A DNA stretch of 25,210 nucleotides from a virus: IMG/VR virus record IMGVR_UViG_3300009176_000876, positions 1-25,210 of that record; one strand, written 5' to 3'. Made by a program: the position numbers and the translations under genes. Position 1 is the first letter of the stretch, and each line of letters opens with the position of its first letter. The notes beneath the pieces are model-generated. The model did not search any database, was not told where the DNA came from, and saw only the letters and a list, made by a program, of their open reading frames with translations. Positions 699-24,213 of the stretch are shown here, in pieces.

Positions 699-1259
699 TC
701 AGCCGCAGACCCAGGGTCCGGCTCCAGCATCGACGTAGAGACGGTGCGCGGCTCGATCTTGGTCTCGCTTGGACCAGTCGCAAGAGCGGCAGTAGGTCGC
801 GTAGGTGGTGTCGAGCAGCTGGTAGGCGCCGCGGGCGCTCGAGGTCGGGTTCTGCGCGCCGTAGTCGCCACCGCTCTCGCAGTCGACGATGTAGAAGGGG
901 ATCGCGTAGCAGCGGCCGCCTTCGCAGTAGGGGGTGACGCGCGAGCGCCAGAGTTCACCGCGGCGGTGCTTGTAGAAGATCCGGCGGTAGAGCGCCCACG
1001 AGCGCTTCATCGCCTTCCGGTCGCCGGCACCGGCCGCACACGTGAACCGGTGGTGCGCTGCGGCGATCGTCACCGCCTTGGGCTTCTCCCTCTCCCACCG
1101 AGACTTCTTCCAGGTCTTCTGGGCGAAGGTCTCAAAGGCTGGGGCGGTGAAGCCCTGGCCGTGGCAGGGGTCTACTGGGTGGGGCGGGATGTTGGGTCGC
1201 AGAGCCTCGGTCGGACTCGCAAGGAGAAGCGCGAGCAGGACGATGGCCCCGATGATCAT
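699..1259 (-). CDS. Secreted Rpf-like transglycosylase/lysozyme-fold wall lysin
   Basis: The product is 186 residues from ATG 1259. Residues 1-19 form a hydrophobic export segment ending SPTEA. The C-terminal part (about 118-186) reads AIPFYIVDCESGGDYGAQNP, then GAYQLLDTTY and AAHRLYVDAGAGPWVC, the order found in resuscitation-promoting-factor-like and transglycosylase domains. Glu128 in CESGG is the expected catalytic acid. Several Cys residues suggest disulfides outside the cell. The best ribosome site (AAAGGAG, 1286-1292) is too far from this ATG but five bases from an in-frame ATC at 1280. That start would add MRRATPP and give the signal peptide a positive n-region. It probably cuts peptidoglycan glycan strands at lysis or entry, but a moron that modifies the host wall is also possible. 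Confidence 0.78.
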   Translation of the reverse strand: MIIGAIVLLALLLASPTEALRPNIPPHPVDPCHGQGFTAPAFETFAQKTWKKSRWEREKPKAVTIAAAHHRFTCAAGAGDRKAMKRSWALYRRIFYKHRRGELWRSRVTPYCEGGRCYAIPFYIVDCESGGDYGAQNPTSSARGAYQLLDTTYATYCRSCDWSKRDQDRAAHRLYVDAGAGPWVCG

Positions 1260-3428: not shown

Positions 3429-4964
3429 CTACGGCCGGTAGCCGGCTTCAAACGGCAGACTGACCGGCTTGTAGTTGACCGTGTCGACCCAGCTCGGTTT
3501 CCAGTTCTTCACCGAGTGGGCACCGCCAGCTGAGCCGTCCTCGCTGACGTTGTAGTCGTAAGTCCCGAAGGAAGCAGCCCGACCCTCAGTCGAGATGTCC
3601 GCGCCTTCCTCGGTCCCCACGAAGACGTTGTGGTCGACCTGGTAGCCCGAGCCGGCAGCCTGGTTCGAGTAGTCCCGGAATAGGCAGCCCCAGTGCGAGT
3701 TGACGATCGTGTTGGCCCGGAAGACCAGCCCCGTGCCCTGGTAGATCTGACAGGTATAGCCGTCTGAGTCGTTGTCGAACAGGTTGTTCGTGACCGAGAC
3801 GTTGGAGAAGGCGCCTTCCTGGAACAGCAGGGACTCATGCGTCCCCGTGTTCCGAGCGACGTTGCCCTTGAAGACGATGTTCTTGCCGCCACCGAAGATC
3901 TGCCAGAGGTCCTGATGGACCGTCGAGTGGGCGTAGCGCAGGCTCGGGCCGAGGAAGGTATTGCCTTCGACCGTGAAGTTCACCGGTGAGGCGGACTGGA
4001 TGTAGTCGTTGGCGACTTCCTTGATCGTGTTGCCGCGGATCGTGAAGCCTTCGACGCCATCGGACGCGGTGATCCCGTAGCCGTTGGCAACTCCCTCAGC
4101 CCCGGTGAAATCGAGGCCGTGGAAGTAGTTGCCTTCGATCAGGACTTCGGAGACCTTGGAGCCGGAGACCGAGTGAGCTTCGCCGCCGGCGTGGATTCCG
4201 AAGGTGCCGGTGAATTCGCTGCCGACGATCTGCACGTCGCGGGTGGCGCCGATCAGGTCGAGCCCTCCCGTGAAGTGCAGGCCGACCAAGCGGACCCCGC
4301 TGGACTTGTTGAGGATCGAATAGCCCAGGGTGCCGGGACCCCGCAGGGTGACGTTCGTCTTTTTGACCTGCGAGAGGCTGAGGGATCCGCTGGCGCCCTT
4401 GAGACAGAGGACCGCGTTGGCGGGCGCGTTGGAGACCGCGGTGCTGATCGAGCCGGTGACGGTCGACGTGCATTCGGCCGGCGCCGGGGGTTCGGGTTTG
4501 GGTTCCGGTTCAGGAGTCGGCGGGATTACGGGCGGCACTTCGATCACTTCGCCGTCCGGTCCCTGGATGCCCTGCGGACCTTGAGGACCTTGTGGGCCGA
4601 CTGGACCCTGGATCCCTTGCGCCCCCTGTGCGCCGGTCGCTCCAGTTTCCCCACGTTCTCCTCGTGGGCCAGCTTCGCCGCGATCACCCTTGTCGCCTTT
4701 GGGGCCAGCGGGACCACGCTCACCAGGCGGCCCCTGTTCGGGAGCAGGCCGGGCCTCGAGCGCGGCAACTCGTTCTGTCACTGCGGCCAGCGCCGAGGTC
4801 AAGGTCGCCAACTTCGAATTCGTCGCCGTCTTGAAGCTGGCGAAGTTTTGCTGGAGGGTCTGGAATTGGGTGAGGGTCGGACCGCTGACCGCCGCCACAG
4901 CACTCGGCGTTACCGAGGCTGCAGCGATGACCAGGGCGAGGAGGAACAGCGGCGGGCGGCGCAC
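3429..4964 (-). CDS. Secreted collagen-like / right-handed beta-helix protein
   Basis: The 511-residue product begins at GTG 4964, four bases after the holin-like gene's stop, with GAGG upstream. Residues 1-25 are a signal peptide ([12 protein letters not shown], then SAVAA). Residues 28-75 form a predicted coiled coil, and 78-137 hold twenty unbroken Gly-X-Y triplets. A Pro/Glu-rich linker follows, and about 165-500 carry repeated 'V.I.GN.F' and 'N.I.' beta-helix rungs ([29 protein letters not shown]), as in pectate-lyase-like folds. Coiled coil, collagen stalk and beta-helix suggest a trimeric fibre with a sugar-binding or sugar-cleaving head. A signal peptide is odd for a tail fibre assembled in the cytoplasm. 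It may instead be a prophage-encoded secreted surface or adhesion protein. I see no clear catalytic residues. Confidence 0.75.
4554..4733 (-). repeat. Collagen-like Gly-X-Y repeat tract (20 triplets)
   Basis: Codes residues 78-137 of the fibre-like protein: perfect Gly in every third residue, with charged GER/GDK/GDR triplets first and Gln/Pro-rich GPQ/GIQ triplets last. Such tracts form collagen triple helices and vary easily in number by recombination. Confidence 0.85.
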
Positions 4965-4968
4965 TTGG

Positions 4969-5202
4969 CTACGCCTCGTCCTTCACCCGAGCCGGGATGC
5001 CGCGGGCTTCGAGGAAGTAGTTGACGTACTTCGCCCCCTCGCCGACGACGGCGCCAGCGAGCAGGCCGCCACCGACGACGATCCAGGCGGTGAGGTCGGC
5101 CGGTGGGTGGATCACGCCTAAGGTGCGCAGCAGTGCGAGAACACCGGTGACGATGAAGGTCGCAACGACCTTGCGGGAAACCGGCACGGTGATGAGGGGC
5201 AT
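4969..5202 (-). CDS. Two-helix membrane protein, holin candidate
   Basis: The product is 77 residues from ATG 5202, preceded by AAAGGAAGGG. A longer reading from 5250 lacks a ribosome site. Two hydrophobic segments are clear: about residues 12-31 ([20 protein letters not shown]) and 38-58 ([20 protein letters not shown]), joined by a short Pro-containing turn. The charged C-terminal tail ends with VKDEA. Small size, two spans and position directly after the endolysin gene fit a class II holin that releases the endolysin through the membrane. Other actinophage lysis regions use several small membrane proteins, so an anti-holin role is also possible. Confidence 0.6.
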
Positions 5203-5210
5203 GAGCCCTT

Positions 5211-5247
5211 CCTTTCGTTCGGTATGGAGCGCCCGGAACGCGGGCGC
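5211..5247 (-). promoter_or_regulatory. Stem-loop and CGAAAGGA ribosome site before the holin gene
   Basis: GCGCCCG (5229-5235) and CGGGCGC (5241-5247) form a 7-bp stem with a five-base loop between the endolysin stop and the holin start. The CGAAAGGA core follows about 12 bases on. It could reduce read-through or delay holin translation, which is inference. Confidence 0.45.
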
Positions 5248-5266
5248 CAAGAGGTACTGCGGTGGG

Positions 5267-6175
5267 CTACTTGCCCTTGGGCTCCCAGATCAGGCAGCGA
5301 TAGAGGCCGTCGCCGAAGAGGTTGACCACGCCAGCATCAACCGGAGCGGAGCCATGGCCGATCGTCCCGTCTCCTCCTTCACCGACATACCCCTCGGTGT
5401 GGTGGCCCACGGTGTCCGACCAAGAGGAGATGTAGACGACGATCCCCCAGCCCTTCGCGCGCATCTCCTTCTCGGTGACGATCTTCCAGCCGTTGTGCTG
5501 GCCGAGAAGCGTGCCGGTGTAGCCGCCGGTGAATCGAGCTCCGTTGGGGTCCGGAAGCTGGGCCGACCAGCAGATGCCGGTCACGAACTGCGAGCAGTCC
5601 GAGCGCTCCCCGTACTGAGGACCGGGCTTGATCTCGTGCTTGCAATCCCAGCTGCCCGACTGCGAGTAGAAGTTGCGGCGCTTGTTCGTGGCGCAGTTCA
5701 CTGCGGCGGTCTTCGCGGCGAGGATGAAGCGCTCGCCCGGATCCCCATCGTCCACGCGGTTGCCATCCACGTGCGGACCGGCCTTGGCGATTTCGCGTTC
5801 GAGCTTTCCGACGTCGGTGGAGATGCCTTCGATGCGCTTCGTCAGCGCCCGAGCCCGGCCGCGCCAGAAGACGGCACGGTGAGATTCCTTCGTCGCCTTC
5901 GCCTGAAGCTTCGCGACCTTGCCGTCCTTGCGCTGGGCCTTGCGCAGCTTCGCTTCTCCCCGGGTCTGATCCTCGTTCGGCCCGTAGGTCAGCAGCGTGT
6001 GGGCTTCTGCCCGCAGCTTGTCGGCGACCTTCATCGCCGCCTTCGCCTGCCGTTCGTAACCCTTCTGGGCAGCGTGGCGTTTCTTCATCTTCCGCACAGC
6101 CCGATCCCTCAAGGCCGTCTGGATCCCAAGGGAGTGCGAGAGCGAACCGAGGCGCGCTCGTAGCTTCGCCAGCAT
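5267..6175 (-). CDS. Endolysin: coiled-coil N-terminus plus NlpC/P60-like peptidase domain
   Basis: The product is 302 residues from ATG 6175, with AAAGGAG eight bases before. Residues 1-135 are Lys/Arg/Ala-rich and predicted coiled coil. Residues about 145-300 resemble an NlpC/P60 cysteine peptidase: Cys194 in RSDCSQFV as nucleophile, His258/259 in GHHTEGYVGEG as the paired base, and His274 in TIGHGSAP as the third member. Such enzymes cut peptide bonds in peptidoglycan stems. No signal peptide is seen, so release needs a holin, consistent with the gene 64 bases downstream. The basic coiled-coil half may bind the wall. Catalytic assignment is by motif position only. Confidence 0.75.
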   Translation of the reverse strand: MLAKLRARLGSLSHSLGIQTALRDRAVRKMKKRHAAQKGYERQAKAAMKVADKLRAEAHTLLTYGPNEDQTRGEAKLRKAQRKDGKVAKLQAKATKESHRAVFWRGRARALTKRIEGISTDVGKLEREIAKAGPHVDGNRVDDGDPGERFILAAKTAAVNCATNKRRNFYSQSGSWDCKHEIKPGPQYGERSDCSQFVTGICWSAQLPDPNGARFTGGYTGTLLGQHNGWKIVTEKEMRAKGWGIVVYISSWSDTVGHHTEGYVGEGGDGTIGHGSAPVDAGVVNLFGDGLYRCLIWEPKGK

Positions 6176-7874: not shown

Positions 7875-8126
7875 TTGCGCCGTCAGAAACCGATGTTGTT
7901 CGTCCTCACTGTCATCGTCGCGGGCTCGCTTGCGACGCCGCTACTCGGTTGTGGGGGCAGCGGCAACCCGACCATTGAAAAGGCGAATGCGAAGGCCCAC
8001 GGCGAGTACGAAGTTTGCATGGAACAGGCTGAAGAAATCGCGAATCAGCAAGGTGCCGACGCAGGCAGCGAACACATGGATCAGTGCGTCAACAATCTCT
8101 CTCACGAAACTTACGTCGAAGAATGA
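7875..8126 (+). CDS. Small lipoprotein
   Basis: The product is 83 residues from TTG 7875, with GAAGGGGAG a few bases upstream. The N-terminus MRRQKPMLFVLTVIVAG continues SLATPLLGC: basic n-region, hydrophobic core and a lipobox with Cys24 as the lipidated residue. The mature part is acidic and helical (ANAKAHGEYEVCMEQAEEIA) with two further Cys that could pair. It belongs to a plus-strand cassette with the repeat protein at 8218. Phage lipoproteins carried this way often block superinfection at the cell surface. That function is plausible here but not shown. Confidence 0.7.
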   Translation: MRRQKPMLFVLTVIVAGSLATPLLGCGGSGNPTIEKANAKAHGEYEVCMEQAEEIANQQGADAGSEHMDQCVNNLSHETYVEE

Positions 8127-8217: not shown

Positions 8218-9006
8218 ATGCAAGCCAAGACTAATCGTCGCCCTCGGCGGCTCCCGAGCTACTCCGCAGTCACCTCGACGCTCGCCCTGATCTTTGCCCT
8301 CGCTGCGTTCTGCGTAGGCGGGGCAATGGCTACTGGAGTACTCGTCACCTCGAAGCAGATCAAGAACGGATCGATCCTCACGCAGGACATCCACAAGAAC
8401 GCGGTCACTGACAAGAGCATCGGCAGCAACGCCGTCACGTCCACGGACATCAAGAACGATGCGGTGGGAGCCGAAGACATCGGTGCCGGCCAGGTCGACT
8501 CAGAAGCGATCGGCACGGGCCAGGTTTCAAGTTCCGACATCGGCAACGGTCAGGTGACGCCGCAGGATGTGACGATGCCTGGCCCCGAGCAGATCAAAGA
8601 CTCGGACGTGGCGAAACTCGCCCCCGCTTCGCTTGCCTTTCAGAGGCTAGATGAGGTTGGCTCCTATACCAAGGAAGACCCCGACTCAGCCCTACAGGTC
8701 GAATGGACCGGGTCGGTCGATGGCCATAATGAGGGCGAAGCTTCTGGGTGTGTTTTTCAGCTTCGTGTCGATGGGCAGCCGCCACAGGGCGGTGGCGGCG
8801 AAGTCTTCGGGCTCGGGGTCGTCAGCATCGCTGACTCCGCGCTCTTCTCCGGCTTGGGCTCGGGTCCGCATGCCATCGAAATCTGGGCACGTCTGGCCCA
8901 GTTTGAACCCACTCCGATGGGTGGCCCGAATGCCAATAGCTGCACCGTGGGGCCGGCCGCCGCGGGAATTAGCCAAACGATCGTCGTCAGCGAGCTGGTG
9001 ATCTAA
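8218..9006 (+). CDS. Membrane-anchored surface protein with five-residue I/V repeat domain
   Basis: The product is 262 residues. A basic start (KTNRRPRRLPSY) and a hydrophobic segment at about 17-40 (STLALIFALAAFCVGGAMAT) give an uncleaved anchor or signal. Residues 46-118 repeat every five residues with Ile or Val central (KQIKN, GSILT, QDIHK, NAVTD, KSIGS, NAVTS, TDIKN). After a linker, residues about 145-262 form a beta-rich domain with two Cys. I recall repeats of this 'DIxNGxV' style as common in Thermoleophilia proteins, so this is probably a host-derived or host-adapted surface protein. Its TAA shares bases with the TAG of the convergent tail gene. Role unknown; a lysogenic-conversion gene is likely. 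Confidence 0.65.
   Translation: MQAKTNRRPRRLPSYSAVTSTLALIFALAAFCVGGAMATGVLVTSKQIKNGSILTQDIHKNAVTDKSIGSNAVTSTDIKNDAVGAEDIGAGQVDSEAIGTGQVSSSDIGNGQVTPQDVTMPGPEQIKDSDVAKLAPASLAFQRLDEVGSYTKEDPDSALQVEWTGSVDGHNEGEASGCVFQLRVDGQPPQGGGGEVFGLGVVSIADSALFSGLGSGPHAIEIWARLAQFEPTPMGGPNANSCTVGPAAAGISQTIVVSELVI
8353..8571 (+). repeat. Pentapeptide-like tandem repeat (about 14 units)
   Basis: Codes residues 46-118 of the surface protein. Each five-residue unit has Ile or Val in the middle, and pairs of units make a ten-residue (30-base) pattern such as SDIGNGQVTP. The regular hydrophobic centre suggests a beta-solenoid. Confidence 0.7.
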
Positions 9007-10634
9007 GGGAGGTTCGCGGCTTCCCGCCCATTCGCCGCCCGGGCCATGTATGCCGAGAGCAACTGGTAGCCGTTGTCAACTGAGATTTGAAGCGTTTTGC
9101 CATCCTGGTCCCAGTTGGTCTGGGTTATGAGGCGAGGCGCATCGTTGGGGTGGTTGACGAGGGCGATCGTTTCGCTTGAGCGAGGCTTCCAACCCTGGTG
9201 CCAGTGGCCCTCAGCATCGCGGATGTAGCCCCCCGCGATGCTGATCGTGCCCGGCGCCTTTGGTCGGTTGTACTCAGCCAGGTAGGCACGCCCAATCTGA
9301 AGGGCTTCGCCGAGGTTGCAGGGGAATGGCGCGGTGTATTCCGCCCATAGGTCGACGCCGTGCCGGTTCGCAGGATTGCCTTCAGCTTCGTCGCGGAGTT
9401 CGGCGAAGTCGCTCGGGTAGAGCGTCTGCGTCCGACCACTGAAGTCGGTGAAGGTGACTTCCACCCCGTTGGCGAAGGACTCGATCGAGTCGCCCTGGAG
9501 GGGCGTGAAGCGGACTCCCGGATCATCGGTGCGGACGATCCAATCGGCTTTGGTCAAATCAGCCGGGTAGTAGAGGAATTTCTTTTCCTCATAGACGGCG
9601 GTCTCGAGGAGGTCGAAGTCGTTCAGGGTTTTGATCGCGTCGTCCGGCTTCACGCCCTTGAAATTGGCCTGGCCAATGGGGTAGCTCGTCGGGTTCCCCG
9701 CCCACGTAAGGGGCGTAAAACGATTGATGATGTCCGCGAGCATGTCCGATGCGAAGAACCCTTCTTCACCGGCCGGTCCCTGCTTAGTCAAGCCATGGCG
9801 CCCAAAGATGCGGGGATTTAAGGCTCCGTGGGCAATGTTGTAATCCCCGATACTGGGCCCTAGGTAGGCGTCCTGAAGCAGGGCGTACTTGTAGCCAGCG
9901 CCGTTTGCGACTGCCGCGAGGTTTGCAACCGCTTCTTGATGGCTCGGCGTCGAGGCAACAACCGAGCTGGTTACATCATCGGGCGAGAGGAAGCCGCACT
10001 CGGCCCAGTTCGTGTCTGGGCTGCCGCCGCTGAGCGTAGCCACGTCAAAACGAAGTTCCCCGATGTCAACTCCGCCGCCCCAATACCACGCCTCCTGCAA
10101 CTCGATATAGGAGGCTTCGAAGTGGTTGAAGGTAAAGACGATCCCGGGCGCGGTTGCGCCAGCCCCGCGCCACCCGTTGATGTCGGGTTCGGCCACAAAC
10201 CGATACCCAGCGGGGATGACCTGAGCCCGCCTAGCGGTTGAGGGGCCACCCCAGTTCGCAAGGGACCGATCAACGTAGATCTCGGAGAATTTTCTAAATC
10301 GCGTCGCCGCATACCAGCCGACCAAGGTCACCAGGAACTGCTGCACTGGATCGTTAGTTCGGCCGAAATCGTGGTTTAGCCCCTCGTAGGCAACTGACCC
10401 GTCCTTGCCAACGAAGCGATGCGTGTCGATGAGGCCGAGATCCTCGTAATCGCGCATCGTTTCTCGGGTCAGTTTGAAGCTCCCTGGGCCGCATCCTTCC
10501 CCGCGCTGGGTCGAGTGGCTGATCGACTGCGGCCGTTTCGATGCCCTCCGAGAGGTCGCATCGAGCCTATAGAGGGTGCCGTCCGCCGTCTCCACCTCGA
10601 CGTCGAGCTCCAGGGGGGGTTTCGTATCGGCCAT
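9003..10634 (-). CDS. Tail-tip/baseplate-hub-like minor tail protein
   Basis: The product is 543 residues from ATG 10634, which overlaps the stop of the preceding gene by one base (ATGA). No signal or membrane span is present. The N-terminus (LELDVEVETADGTLYRLDAT) and following beta-rich part resemble the first ring-forming domain of siphovirus tail hubs. Position supports this: two genes after the tape measure, where hub and receptor-binding proteins lie. The C-terminal part ends with LAYLAEYNRP-like and GYIRDAEGHW segments. I do not recognise a peptidase or lectin motif. It is the last gene of the tail operon, and its stop codon touches that of the convergent surface-protein gene, with no terminator between. 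Exact family is unsure. Confidence 0.6.
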   Translation of the reverse strand: MADTKPPLELDVEVETADGTLYRLDATSRRASKRPQSISHSTQRGEGCGPGSFKLTRETMRDYEDLGLIDTHRFVGKDGSVAYEGLNHDFGRTNDPVQQFLVTLVGWYAATRFRKFSEIYVDRSLANWGGPSTARRAQVIPAGYRFVAEPDINGWRGAGATAPGIVFTFNHFEASYIELQEAWYWGGGVDIGELRFDVATLSGGSPDTNWAECGFLSPDDVTSSVVASTPSHQEAVANLAAVANGAGYKYALLQDAYLGPSIGDYNIAHGALNPRIFGRHGLTKQGPAGEEGFFASDMLADIINRFTPLTWAGNPTSYPIGQANFKGVKPDDAIKTLNDFDLLETAVYEEKKFLYYPADLTKADWIVRTDDPGVRFTPLQGDSIESFANGVEVTFTDFSGRTQTLYPSDFAELRDEAEGNPANRHGVDLWAEYTAPFPCNLGEALQIGRAYLAEYNRPKAPGTISIAGGYIRDAEGHWHQGWKPRSSETIALVNHPNDAPRLITQTNWDQDGKTLQISVDNGYQLLSAYMARAANGREAANLP

Positions 10635-20746: not shown

Positions 20747-21100
20747 TCAGGGACCCTCGTTGTTGTCGACGATCTCGAAGCTTGGCTTCGGGTTCTTGTT
20801 GGGGAAGAATTGGATTCTGGGAGGCGTCGAGCTTTCGTCCCAGGTCACCTTGATTTCGACGTCGTATTTGTCGCCGACGTTGTCGAGGTCTCCTTCGTTC
20901 CAGACGTAGCGGGCGTTGAATTCGTCTTCGTCGGGCGGCGAGATCGCTTCGACGTCACCGCGGATCAGATTGACGCCATCGAAGATCAACGCCTCGGCTT
21001 TATCGGCCGAGGCGATGTCGACGAGCTCACCCTTGTCGTCCTTGAGCTGGAATCGTTCAGGCGGCCAGGTTTCGCCCTTCGTGCGGGTGCTGTCAGCCAT
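20747..21100 (-). CDS. Small structural protein with BppU/Ig-like fold
   Basis: The product is 117 residues from ATG 21100, starting eight bases inside the end of the preceding gene. Sequence such as DVEAISPPDEDEFNARYVWN, then DVGDKYDVEIKV-type strands and RIQFFPN, resembles the small beta-sandwich used in BppU-type and other phage surface proteins, with the usual order 'W..GD.d..G.Y...v.v....G...tFPN'. It lies among head-connector genes. It may decorate the capsid or neck. No enzyme motif is seen, and the name is by resemblance only. Confidence 0.55.
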   Translation of the reverse strand: MADSTRTKGETWPPERFQLKDDKGELVDIASADKAEALIFDGVNLIRGDVEAISPPDEDEFNARYVWNEGDLDNVGDKYDVEIKVTWDESSTPPRIQFFPNKNPKPSFEIVDNNEGP

Positions 21101-22325
21101 CTAGGCCCAACTCCGTGGAAGGGGCGTCAGGGACGAGGCGGCTGCTTGGAGACTCCGGTGCAAGGTCACTGGTCGGTCCCTCCGTCGTCAGGGTGTTGGA
21201 GACGCCGCCCTCCAGCTCGAGGCCCGTGCTCGGCCCTTCAACCATCAGGGCGGAGGCCGAGACGCTCGCTACAAGGGAGGTCGGGGCGCCGGACAGGGTC
21301 AGCTTGGTCGGGAGATCGGAGAGGGGCGCTTCCCGGTCACCGATGACCACTTCGGGCACCGGCATGGCCGCGAGGATGACCGCGGATGGAGCGACCACCG
21401 TGAGATTTATGCCGGCTGCTGCTGCGCTCACGACAGCCACGGCGGCTGGGCTCTGCAGGCCGATGCTCGCGGCCGGGGGTGCTGCTCCCGCGGACGCGCT
21501 ACCCGCCGGCAGGGACACAGTGGCGCCCGGCGTCGGGGGGTCCGCCCCGGCGGTGGCGCCGGCAGAGGCCGCCGTCACCGTGACGCCCAGCGCCGGGCCA
21601 ACCCCAGACGCGCTGGCCCCACCCGCCGTGGTGGTAATCGAGGCAGAAGGCGTCGGCGCTGATGCTGCGGCGGCAATGGCGCCGGACGGAGCGCTGAGGT
21701 TGATGGTCGGCACGGCCGCCGAGGCCGAGAGGATCGCCACGGCGGTCGGAGCGGCGACCGTCACGTCTTCGGTCAGCGCCCCACCGTAGAAGTCGTCCCA
21801 AGCAATACCGGTGCCGCTCCCGGCGCAACCGATGAACCCTTCACCGCTGACCGTCGAGTTCGTTTTTTCGATGACGGTGGTTTTGACCCCGGCCGCCGTT
21901 TCGTGGACGCACTTGATCGTCGTGCCGTTGCATTCCAGCCAGAGCTTGTCGCCGACCGCGATCGTCTTCGTGCCGGTGCCCACCGTCGCTTCGACGCCCG
22001 CTTTGACGCTCCCCAGTTCCCAGGCGCCCGCCGTCGTGACGGCGAGGTAGTAGCAATTCAGGGTCGACAGGCCAGGATTCTGAATCCGAGCCGTCAGCTC
22101 GAAGGTGCGGCTGGTCGTGGTCGCTGCGACCGTGACGCGCACGACCTGATTCGCTGCGAATTTCGTCGCCCAGTAGGAGTTCGACCAGGCGTTTTCGGAG
22201 TTGGCGAACCGTTCGCTGGTGAGGGCGACCTGTTTGTCGCCGTTGAAGACGGGCCCTTTCCACGCGCCCCCGTTGTTGAGCGGGGTTTCGTTGGCGCGGT
22301 TCGCGTTGTCGAGAAGGGTCGCCAC
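21093..22325 (-). CDS. Repeat-rich virion decoration/fibre protein with lectin-like N-terminus
   Basis: The product is 410 residues from GTG 22325, with AGAGG five bases before. Residues 1-185 are beta-rich and resemble laminin-G/concanavalin-type domains (ATLLDNANRANETPLNNGG, then WELGSVKAGVEATVGTGTKT and GEGFIGCAGSGTGIAWDDFY). Residues about 190-330 repeat an Ala/Ser/Pro-rich unit of roughly 20 residues. Residues 345-410 repeat a shorter unit of the form 'PSTxLxxE' about four times. Codon third positions stay GC-rich, so this is a real protein. Location between capsid decoration and connector genes suggests a head fibre or appendage. Sugar binding is inferred from fold resemblance. Confidence 0.6.
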   Translation of the reverse strand: MATLLDNANRANETPLNNGGAWKGPVFNGDKQVALTSERFANSENAWSNSYWATKFAANQVVRVTVAATTTSRTFELTARIQNPGLSTLNCYYLAVTTAGAWELGSVKAGVEATVGTGTKTIAVGDKLWLECNGTTIKCVHETAAGVKTTVIEKTNSTVSGEGFIGCAGSGTGIAWDDFYGGALTEDVTVAAPTAVAILSASAAVPTINLSAPSGAIAAAASAPTPSASITTTAGGASASGVGPALGVTVTAASAGATAGADPPTPGATVSLPAGSASAGAAPPAASIGLQSPAAVAVVSAAAAGINLTVVAPSAVILAAMPVPEVVIGDREAPLSDLPTKLTLSGAPTSLVASVSASALMVEGPSTGLELEGGVSNTLTTEGPTSDLAPESPSSRLVPDAPSTELGLDG

Positions 22326-23016: not shown

Positions 23017-24213
23017 CTATTCAGCGCACTGAGCCGTCTTGAACGCGTTCTGGTCGATGATCCGACCATCGGTGCGCAGGACGCCGCGCCATGCCACCTG
23101 GCCTTTGTCCGCGTACCGCTCGGTCAGCACCCGGATCGTGACGCCAAGGGCATCGCGGATCAGGTAGGCCCGTTTCACGTCGCCGAACCCGACGACGACC
23201 TTTTTGCTGCCGACTTCTTCGACGTCCGGGTCCGAGTAGACCGGGTAGCCGAGGATGCGGTCCGGCTCGCCAAGCTGAAGGCTCGGCTGCCAGAGGTACT
23301 GTTCGTTTTTGTCCTTCAGTTTTCGGACGATCGCCAGGGTCTTGTCCGCGATAAGCCAGGAGGCATTCGCCCGGTAGGGACGGATGACGGAGTGCTCGAG
23401 GTCGATCAGGTTGTCCCCGGTCGGCCCTGCGGTTTTCGAGACACCCGAAAGCCCGACGACAGATTTCGCCATCAGACCTTCAGGCTGTTCAGTGCCAGAC
23501 CCCGCGACATAGCCTTTGTTGGTCGCACGACCCAGCTGGAAGCCCAGGCGGCGACCGACGAAGCCAGCCACGTCGAAGAGGGCGTCCTGCACCATCTCCT
23601 CGGAGGCGAGGGTCATGCGCGCGTACTTGAACGCACCGACCAGTTTCTCTCCGAATTCGTCCGCGTCGTCCGGAGTCGTTTCCGCCTCTTTGACGACTTT
23701 CGGGTCTTCCGCATACGTTTTCACGTAGGGAATGTGGAACGAAGCACCGCTCTCCGTGGTGATCACCTCGGCAAGGCCACGAACCGTTCCGAATTCCAGG
23801 AGCGATTCATGCAGCGCCCCCCATTCCTCAGGGACGGCCAAGCCGCCTTCTTCGTCGGAGCCGACTTTGAGGGTAGAGCGCTGCTCGGCACTCAATTCCC
23901 GTTTGGCGGCATAGGCGTTCAGGGCCTCGCGGTACTCATCCGAGCTTCGGTCGAGCGTCCGTTCCTCGGCCCCGCCATCCTCAGGCGCGGAGCGTTCCTC
24001 CGCGATGGCGCGGATATCCAGCCCCTCGTGGCCCTGGGTTTTTTCGTGGCGACGGATTTCGGCGGTCACGTCATCGACCCGCGAGTCAATGCGGTCGAAC
24101 TCCTGGGACTCCTCGGAGGACAGCTCGCGCGTCTCTCCTGCTGCTTTGTCGAGAATGCCGCGCTGCTCAGTAACGAGTTTCGCGCGCTCCTCGATCAGGT
24201 CACCAATAGGCAT
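23017..24213 (-). CDS. Major capsid protein, HK97 fold, with N-terminal delta domain
   Basis: The product is 398 residues from ATG 24213, with GAAAGGA six bases before. Residues 1-60 form a coiled coil (IGDLIEERAKLVTEQRGILD) like the HK97 delta/scaffold domain that the prohead protease removes. LKVGSDEEGGLAVPEEWGAL (about 136-155) is the typical entry to the HK97 shell fold. The C-terminus has the family pattern AYLIRDALGVTIRVLTERYA, then RGVLRTDGRIIDQNAF. The upstream gene pair and the protease at the window edge match this role. It builds the icosahedral head. Final cleavage site cannot be fixed from sequence alone. Confidence 0.9.
   Translation of the reverse strand: MPIGDLIEERAKLVTEQRGILDKAAGETRELSSEESQEFDRIDSRVDDVTAEIRRHEKTQGHEGLDIRAIAEERSAPEDGGAEERTLDRSSDEYREALNAYAAKRELSAEQRSTLKVGSDEEGGLAVPEEWGALHESLLEFGTVRGLAEVITTESGASFHIPYVKTYAEDPKVVKEAETTPDDADEFGEKLVGAFKYARMTLASEEMVQDALFDVAGFVGRRLGFQLGRATNKGYVAGSGTEQPEGLMAKSVVGLSGVSKTAGPTGDNLIDLEHSVIRPYRANASWLIADKTLAIVRKLKDKNEQYLWQPSLQLGEPDRILGYPVYSDPDVEEVGSKKVVVGFGDVKRAYLIRDALGVTIRVLTERYADKGQVAWRGVLRTDGRIIDQNAFKTAQCAE

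What the first reader, a model, noticed from the sequence alone, without database searches (positions are those of the whole stretch)
3429..4964. Exported collagen-stalk beta-helix protein within the lysis block
Signal peptide, coiled coil, 20 Gly-X-Y triplets and a long beta-helix make a trimeric fibre design. A signal peptide argues against ordinary tail assembly, so the infected cell or lysogen may display or secrete it. It could be a surface adhesin, a receptor mask or a biofilm-degrading enzyme, none well known for phages of this host group.
Basis: partly seen in the sequence, partly recalled or inferred. Interest (0 to 1): 0.65.

Follow-up and report, generated by a model that had tools for sequence, protein, structure and literature searches.

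The report
Host-derived exported sugar-binding lysis-block protein
A virus of soil bacteria carries, right behind its cell-lysis genes, a gene for a probably secreted protein related to its host's own slime-polysaccharide proteins, perhaps used to loosen or cover the host's sugary coat as new viruses are released.

Summary
In detail: window 3429-4964 (-) encodes 511 aa with a Sec-type signal peptide, coiled coil, 21 uninterrupted Gly-X-Y triplets, a Pro-rich linker and a C-terminal right-handed parallel beta-helix (AlphaFold2 pLDDT 88.9). It starts 4 bp after a holin-like gene.

Signal peptide and coiled coil are kept; the collagen is missing. (2) The helix is a host domain. Solirubrobacterales genomes encode secreted or membrane-anchored versions beside exopolysaccharide genes; MAG G002 has at least three in tandem. 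(3) G001's contig ends in 1.6 kb of chromosome 89% identical to G002, so it is apparently a prophage of a relative of G002. Its helix resembles G002's (75%) more than the window's. (4) Top structural matches include alginate epimerases, PL6 lyases and RbmB, a secreted matrix lyase.

Best explanation: a captured host exopolysaccharide protein with a trimer stalk, exported late in infection and acting on surface or matrix polysaccharide. Export is well supported but only predicted; cleavage versus binding is open. New variant of a known kind (soluble phage depolymerases such as PghP, LevP).

The parts
3429..4964 (-). whole gene, 511 aa, GTG start
   Evidence: full-length relative in phage G001
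4893..4964 (-). predicted Sec signal peptide, residues 1-24 (AVA|AV)
   Evidence: kept in G001 as MRGLRLFLALSVAALLIGPNAIA|AT
4749..4877 (-). coiled-coil-like segment, about residues 30-72
   Evidence: weak Matrilin_ccoil match; the G001 relative also has a heptad-like segment here
4545..4733 (-). collagen-like stalk, 21 Gly-X-Y triplets, residues 78-140
   Evidence: absent in the G001 relative
4473..4544 (-). Pro/Glu-rich linker, residues 141-164
   Evidence: sequence; PEPEPEPEPP in G001
3432..4472 (-). right-handed parallel beta-helix domain, residues 165-511, four cysteines
   Evidence: host relatives
4969..5250 (-). holin-like small membrane protein directly upstream (4 bp gap)
   Evidence: position and hydrophobic sequence; no family match above cut-off
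5267..6175 (-). endolysin candidate (302 aa)
   Evidence: position; no Pfam or NCBIfam match; the G001 block holds VanY + PG_binding here
9003..10634 (-). tail-tip protein; its homologue in G001 is fused to LamG and a second, diverged beta-helix

Best explanation
The gene encodes a soluble exported beta-helix protein captured from the host's exopolysaccharide-associated proteins and placed at the end of the phage lysis operon. Late in infection it is made with the lysis proteins, leaves the cell by the Sec pathway, forms a trimer through its coiled coil and collagen-like stalk (about 18 nm if triple-helical), and engages the host's own surface or matrix polysaccharide with the beta-helix, most likely cleaving or otherwise modifying it. 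The benefit would be that progeny leave the coat or matrix and do not stick to debris. Shown by computation: gene layout, export signal, fold, host homology, exopolysaccharide-locus context of host copies, host group of the sister prophage. Inferred: trimer, timing, target polymer, catalysis, benefit.
For: Same gene in the same slot after the holin-like gene in two phages, with start/stop overlap in G001. The helix domain is under purifying constraint (dN 0.31 vs dS 0.82 to G001). Host relatives: MAG G002 has at least three tandem genes at 59, 58 and 49% identity, two of them with TSP3-like and Ig-like parts, beside UDP-sugar dehydrogenase, GT2, hexapeptide transferase, DegT aminotransferase, GT28 and polysaccharide deacetylase genes; further copies beside glycosyltransferase-type genes in G078, G133 and G343, and beside acyltransferase or asparagine-synthase-type genes in G067 and G124. 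G001 ends in chromosome whose PntB is 96% identical to G002's (next best 89%) and whose 1,644 bp align at 89% to G002, breaking inside a TadE-like gene; G001's beta-helix is 75% identical to G002's but 64% to the window's. Fold: AlgE6 Z 28.5, PL6 lyases 28.4, RbmB 28.1, AlgG 26.3; profile hits to PfbA (E 1.5e-10) and PL6 AlyF (E 8e-7). RbmB is secreted, has four cysteines and sits in a matrix gene cluster (PMC11637428). Precedent: phage phiNIT1 PghP and LevP, apparently host-derived exopolymer enzymes; PghP seems not to be a virion part and is released at lysis (PMC6966330).
Against: Right-handed beta-helices in general match these enzymes, so the fold alone does not show catalysis; the best sequence match in the PDB is the adhesin PfbA. 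Catalytic residues could not be mapped. A related beta-helix sits in G001's tail-tip protein and one in the late region of phage L014, so this domain type can be virion-borne. Only two phages carry the exported form. Direction of transfer is not settled by the tree (71/90 support for the two phage rows). The signal peptide was judged by a simple rule only.
Confidence: 0.5

Rival explanations
1. Exported but non-enzymatic: the trimer coats the host polysaccharide or another receptor (receptor mask or superinfection exclusion), displayed by infected cells or lysogens.
For: Best sequence match in the PDB is the surface adhesin PfbA; collagen-stalk resemblance to Scl/Lcl adhesins; G001's own tail tip carries a related beta-helix, so an exported copy could compete for the same ligand; G001 is apparently a prophage.
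Against: No LPXTG, lipobox or other anchor is visible in the sequence; tight linkage to the holin-like gene suggests late lytic rather than lysogenic expression.
Confidence: 0.22
2. Tail fibre or spike: the signal-like N-terminus is not used and the protein is assembled into the virion as a side fibre.
For: Collagen part matches PHROG tail-fibre families; beta-helix tailspikes are common; related beta-helix in the G001 tail tip and one in L014's late region.
Against: PHROG matches centre on the collagen-like residues; the G001 relative without collagen has no PHROG match at all; predicted signal peptide kept in both phages; no shared virion-adaptor domain seen at the N-terminus; gene separated from the tail genes by the lysis block; Cys1/Cys23 of exported and host copies are missing in the two virion-type copies.
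Confidence: 0.17
3. Lysogenic-conversion gene: the prophage adds a matrix or adhesion protein that changes biofilm behaviour of the lysogen, as the host homologues may do.
For: Close host homologues in an exopolysaccharide locus; apparent prophage context of G001.
Against: No promoter-like site found between the holin-like gene and this gene, though the scan covers one promoter type only; same strand as, and tightly linked to, the lysis genes.
Confidence: 0.1

Closest known systems
phiNIT1 PghP and LevP (soluble phage exopolymer enzymes; PMC6966330)
   Same: apparently host-derived; PghP seems not to be a virion part, is made late and released at lysis; both act on the host's exopolymer
   Different: no sequence relation tested; here a signal peptide, a likely trimer stalk and a beta-helix, directly behind the holin-like gene
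RbmB, Vibrio cholerae matrix lyase (PMC11637428; PDB 9ozl)
   Same: parallel beta-helix (Z 28.1), signal peptide, four cysteines; its family, like the host copies here, is encoded in a matrix polysaccharide gene cluster
   Different: 16% identity; bacterial not phage gene; no collagen stalk; catalysis not shown here
PL6 alginate lyases and AlgE/AlgG epimerases
   Same: fold (Z 26-28); weak profile match to PL6 AlyF
   Different: 10-19% identity; active site not mapped
PfbA, pneumococcal surface adhesin
   Same: beta-helix, best sequence-profile match in the PDB (E 1.5e-10), surface exposed
   Different: annotated as a cell-wall anchored protein; no anchor here
Bacterial collagen-like adhesins Scl1/Scl2, Lcl
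   Same: signal peptide and collagen stalk layout
   Different: scores far below the NCBIfam cut-offs; C-terminal beta-helix instead of wall anchor
Phage collagen-containing tail fibres and beta-helix tailspikes
   Same: collagen and beta-helix building blocks
   Different: signal peptide, lysis-block position, host-type cysteine pattern

Membership tests
secreted beta-helix polysaccharide lyase or epimerase (PL6, RbmB, AlgE/AlgG) | right-handed parallel beta-helix fold | tested here: met
   (Z 26-28 over about 275-316 residues)
secreted beta-helix polysaccharide lyase or epimerase (PL6, RbmB, AlgE/AlgG) | catalytic and calcium-binding residues in the groove | not testable with these tools
   no coordinates or residue-level structural alignment available; invariant H350, Q355 and Asn residues have no assigned role
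secreted beta-helix polysaccharide lyase or epimerase (PL6, RbmB, AlgE/AlgG) | secretion signal | tested here: met
   rule-based screen, (no dedicated predictor)
secreted beta-helix polysaccharide lyase or epimerase (PL6, RbmB, AlgE/AlgG) | cleaves or epimerises a polysaccharide | not testable with these tools
   needs an assay
soluble non-virion phage depolymerase (PghP/LevP kind) | of host origin | tested here: inconclusive
   host copies in Solirubrobacterales; phage-host identity (75%) exceeds phage-phage (64%) for G001; direction not proven by the tree
soluble non-virion phage depolymerase (PghP/LevP kind) | late expression and release with lysis | tested here: inconclusive
   operon position behind the holin-like gene in two phages; no expression data
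soluble non-virion phage depolymerase (PghP/LevP kind) | absent from virions | not testable with these tools
   needs virion proteomics
tail fibre or tailspike | family-level homology to a tail fibre outside the collagen repeats | tested here: not met
   25 best of 40 PHROG matches shown, centred on the collagen region; the collagen-free G001 relative has none
tail fibre or tailspike | cytoplasmic protein without export signal | tested here: not met
   predicted signal peptide in both phages
NosD | Pfam or NCBIfam score above cut-off | tested here: not met
   18.4 vs 23.6 bits; 17.6 vs 300
collagen-like adhesin Scl/Lcl | NCBIfam equivalog score and wall-anchor motif | tested here: not met
   64 of 325 and 57 of 500 bits; C-terminus ends ...LPFEAGYRP without a membrane tail

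The most novel reading that the evidence does not exclude
Some phages of polysaccharide-coated actinobacteria carry a dedicated extra lysis function: a Sec-exported trimeric enzyme taken from the host's exopolysaccharide-associated proteins that opens the sugar coat at release, playing for the coat the part that spanins play for the outer membrane.
Probability: 0.27. Interest if true: 0.75.

Novelty: new variant of a known kind. Interest (0 to 1): 0.55.

Why it matters
Phage depolymerases are mostly discussed as virion parts used for entry. Here a domain of host proteins from polysaccharide loci appears as an exported protein tied to the lysis genes, and in a sister prophage a related domain also sits in the tail tip. 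If true, it points to exit through the coat as a selected step and to exchange of surface-protein modules between Solirubrobacterales and their little-studied phages. The host copies also mark a family of possible matrix-modifying proteins in a soil group.

Tried and rejected
No relative of the full protein by tblastn in 50,697 phage records. The first genome-contig scan used a helix pattern and a PE-rich pattern and found nothing; a viral scan with the full-length alignment returned only matches to the collagen/stalk region, L008-L013, not used. No single-sequence PDB match to the beta-helix. No PADLOC match for the protein. NosD was rejected on score. Strand-by-strand conservation did not single out one face of the helix as a groove (means 0.56, 0.55, 0.60 over 13 rows; 0.83, 0.73, 0.84 in the close set), so I make no active-site claim. 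The tree left most deep branches open and had long branches meeting, so direction and number of captures are not claimed from it. A search for more phages of this group through the tail tip gave only G457, which lacks the beta-helix. Paper searches found precedents for soluble phage exopolymer enzymes and for exported endolysins, but no phage lysis-block beta-helix protein with a signal peptide; most subscription journals are not covered.

Full report
The window is a 25,210-base virus record with a siphovirus-type late region on the - strand: capsid (23017-24213), tail genes, tape measure, distal and tip proteins, then small membrane genes, an endolysin candidate, a holin-like gene and the gene in question, then RusA.

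The protein of 511 aa has a Sec-like N-terminus with an A-x-A site, a heptad-like segment, 21 uninterrupted Gly-X-Y triplets (shuffles reach 6), a Pro/Glu linker and a beta-helix. My signal-peptide screen is a simple rule; it passes 3 of 30 window genes and about 4% of shuffles of this N-terminus. The beta-helix model made from 13 related sequences has pLDDT 88.9 and pTM 0.91.

A full-length phage relative was found once in IMG/VR: L002, in a 57,684-base contig I call G001. It has signal peptide, coiled coil, PEPEP linker and beta-helix (64% identity in the domain) but no collagen. Its TTG start overlaps the stop of the holin-like gene; in the window the gap is 4 bp. The block before it holds a VanY + PG_binding endolysin. 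So the slot and the export signal are kept while the stalk varies. In a third related phage, G457, the beta-helix is missing and the gene before the holin-like gene is a VanY + PG_binding + GH25 endolysin with its own signal peptide, so export from the lysis block is not unusual in this group; exported endolysins are known elsewhere (PMC6116005).

The domain is also a host domain. A second genome-contig scan reached a Solirubrobacterales MAG (G002, contig JAJKHV010000057.1) with at least three tandem genes carrying the same beta-helix at 59, 58 and 49% identity; two have signal peptide, TSP3-like and Ig-like parts in front. The neighbours are a UDP-sugar dehydrogenase, GT2, hexapeptide transferase, DegT aminotransferase, GT28 and polysaccharide deacetylase. 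More distant relatives in the order and class lie beside glycosyltransferase-type genes (G078, G133, G343), or beside acyltransferase or asparagine-synthase-type genes (G067, G124). The family is sporadic: 6 of 232 genomes of the order, 6 of 399 of the class, 2 of 396 sampled in the phylum at the thresholds used.

Host link. G001 ends in a pntB gene 96% identical to that of G002; the next best is 89% in the class sample, and 78% or less in the phylum sample. The final 1,644 bases align at 89.1% to G002 contig 117 and stop inside a TadE-like gene. This reads as a prophage in a relative of G002 interrupting that gene, unless the contig is an assembly chimera; only this one junction was seen. G001's beta-helix is 74.6% identical to a G002 host copy but 64.3% to the window's. 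That fits capture from, or exchange with, such hosts; the tree leaves direction open. For the window itself the host is inferred from this kinship and from a second gene whose N-terminal part has relatives in 70 of 121 genomes of the order.

Compartment. In the window, G001 and host copies with an intact start of the domain, Cys1 is always present and Cys23 in all but one (G078); the close group adds Cys241 and Cys263. The tail-tip copy of G001 and the L014 copy lack Cys1 and Cys23. This fits a protein folded outside the cell, as with RbmB, whose authors obtained soluble protein only after routing it to the periplasm for disulfide formation (PMC11637428).

Function. The best structural matches are AlgE6 (Z 28.5), PL6 alginate lyases (28.4), RbmB (28.1), AlgE4 (28.0), PfbA (27.5), phi29 gp12 (27.4) and AlgG (26.3). 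Z differences under 1 are ties, and a shared fold shows no function. By profile, PfbA (E 1.5e-10) and PL6 AlyF (8e-7) lead. What raises polysaccharide action above a generic beta-helix guess is the exopolysaccharide context of host copies. Whether the domain cuts or only binds is not known; invariant H350 and Q355 stand out but cannot be assigned.

The same domain type also reaches tail proteins: G001's 1192-aa protein carries LamG plus a beta-helix 29% identical to the window's, joined to a C-terminal half homologous to the window's tail tip; host gene G073 has LamG-like, beta-helix, LamG-like segments (read from the sequence). So module exchange with host surface proteins may have happened more than once. 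If the tail reads the coat polysaccharide, an exported protein acting on the same coat at lysis would free progeny from debris and matrix; this last step is inference.

Verdict: a real, probably exported, host-related protein of the lysis block. In its logic a new variant of the soluble phage depolymerase kind; not shown to be one in activity.

Noticed in passing
window 7875-8126 (+): Small lipoprotein-like gene (LLGC lipobox-like motif) on the opposite strand inside the late region; moron-like, not in the same place in G001. Possible superinfection-exclusion lipoprotein.
   Followed up: partly
window 8218-9006 (+): 262-aa protein with N-terminal hydrophobic segment and SKQIKNGSILTQDIHKNAVT-type repeats; its N-terminal part has relatives in 70 of 121 genomes of the Solirubrobacterales MAG's order.
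   Followed up: partly
window 699-1259 (-): Transglycosylase-like (Rpf-like) protein with N-terminal hydrophobic segment; a relative-looking gene lies in G001 (L002:14991-15497).
   Followed up: partly
L007:16041-17684: Right end of G001 is host chromosome (pntB, TadE-like gene) with a sharp break, giving one side of a possible prophage junction; no tRNA found there.
   Followed up: yes
L002:11493-13004 and window 21093-22325: Repeat-rich proteins sharing the N-terminus MATLLDN.NRANETPLNNGG lie behind the beta-helix gene in G001 but behind the capsid gene in the window; the block has moved.
   Followed up: partly
L015:9312-10400: Third host beta-helix copy looks mosaic: diverged first part, later part much like copy b, suggesting recombination between tandem copies; cut by the contig end.
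   Followed up: no
L014:9287-10630: Another phage has a PEPDPE linker plus beta-helix without signal peptide between a phrog_644 gene and a repeat protein; matches tail spike phrog_2234.
   Followed up: partly
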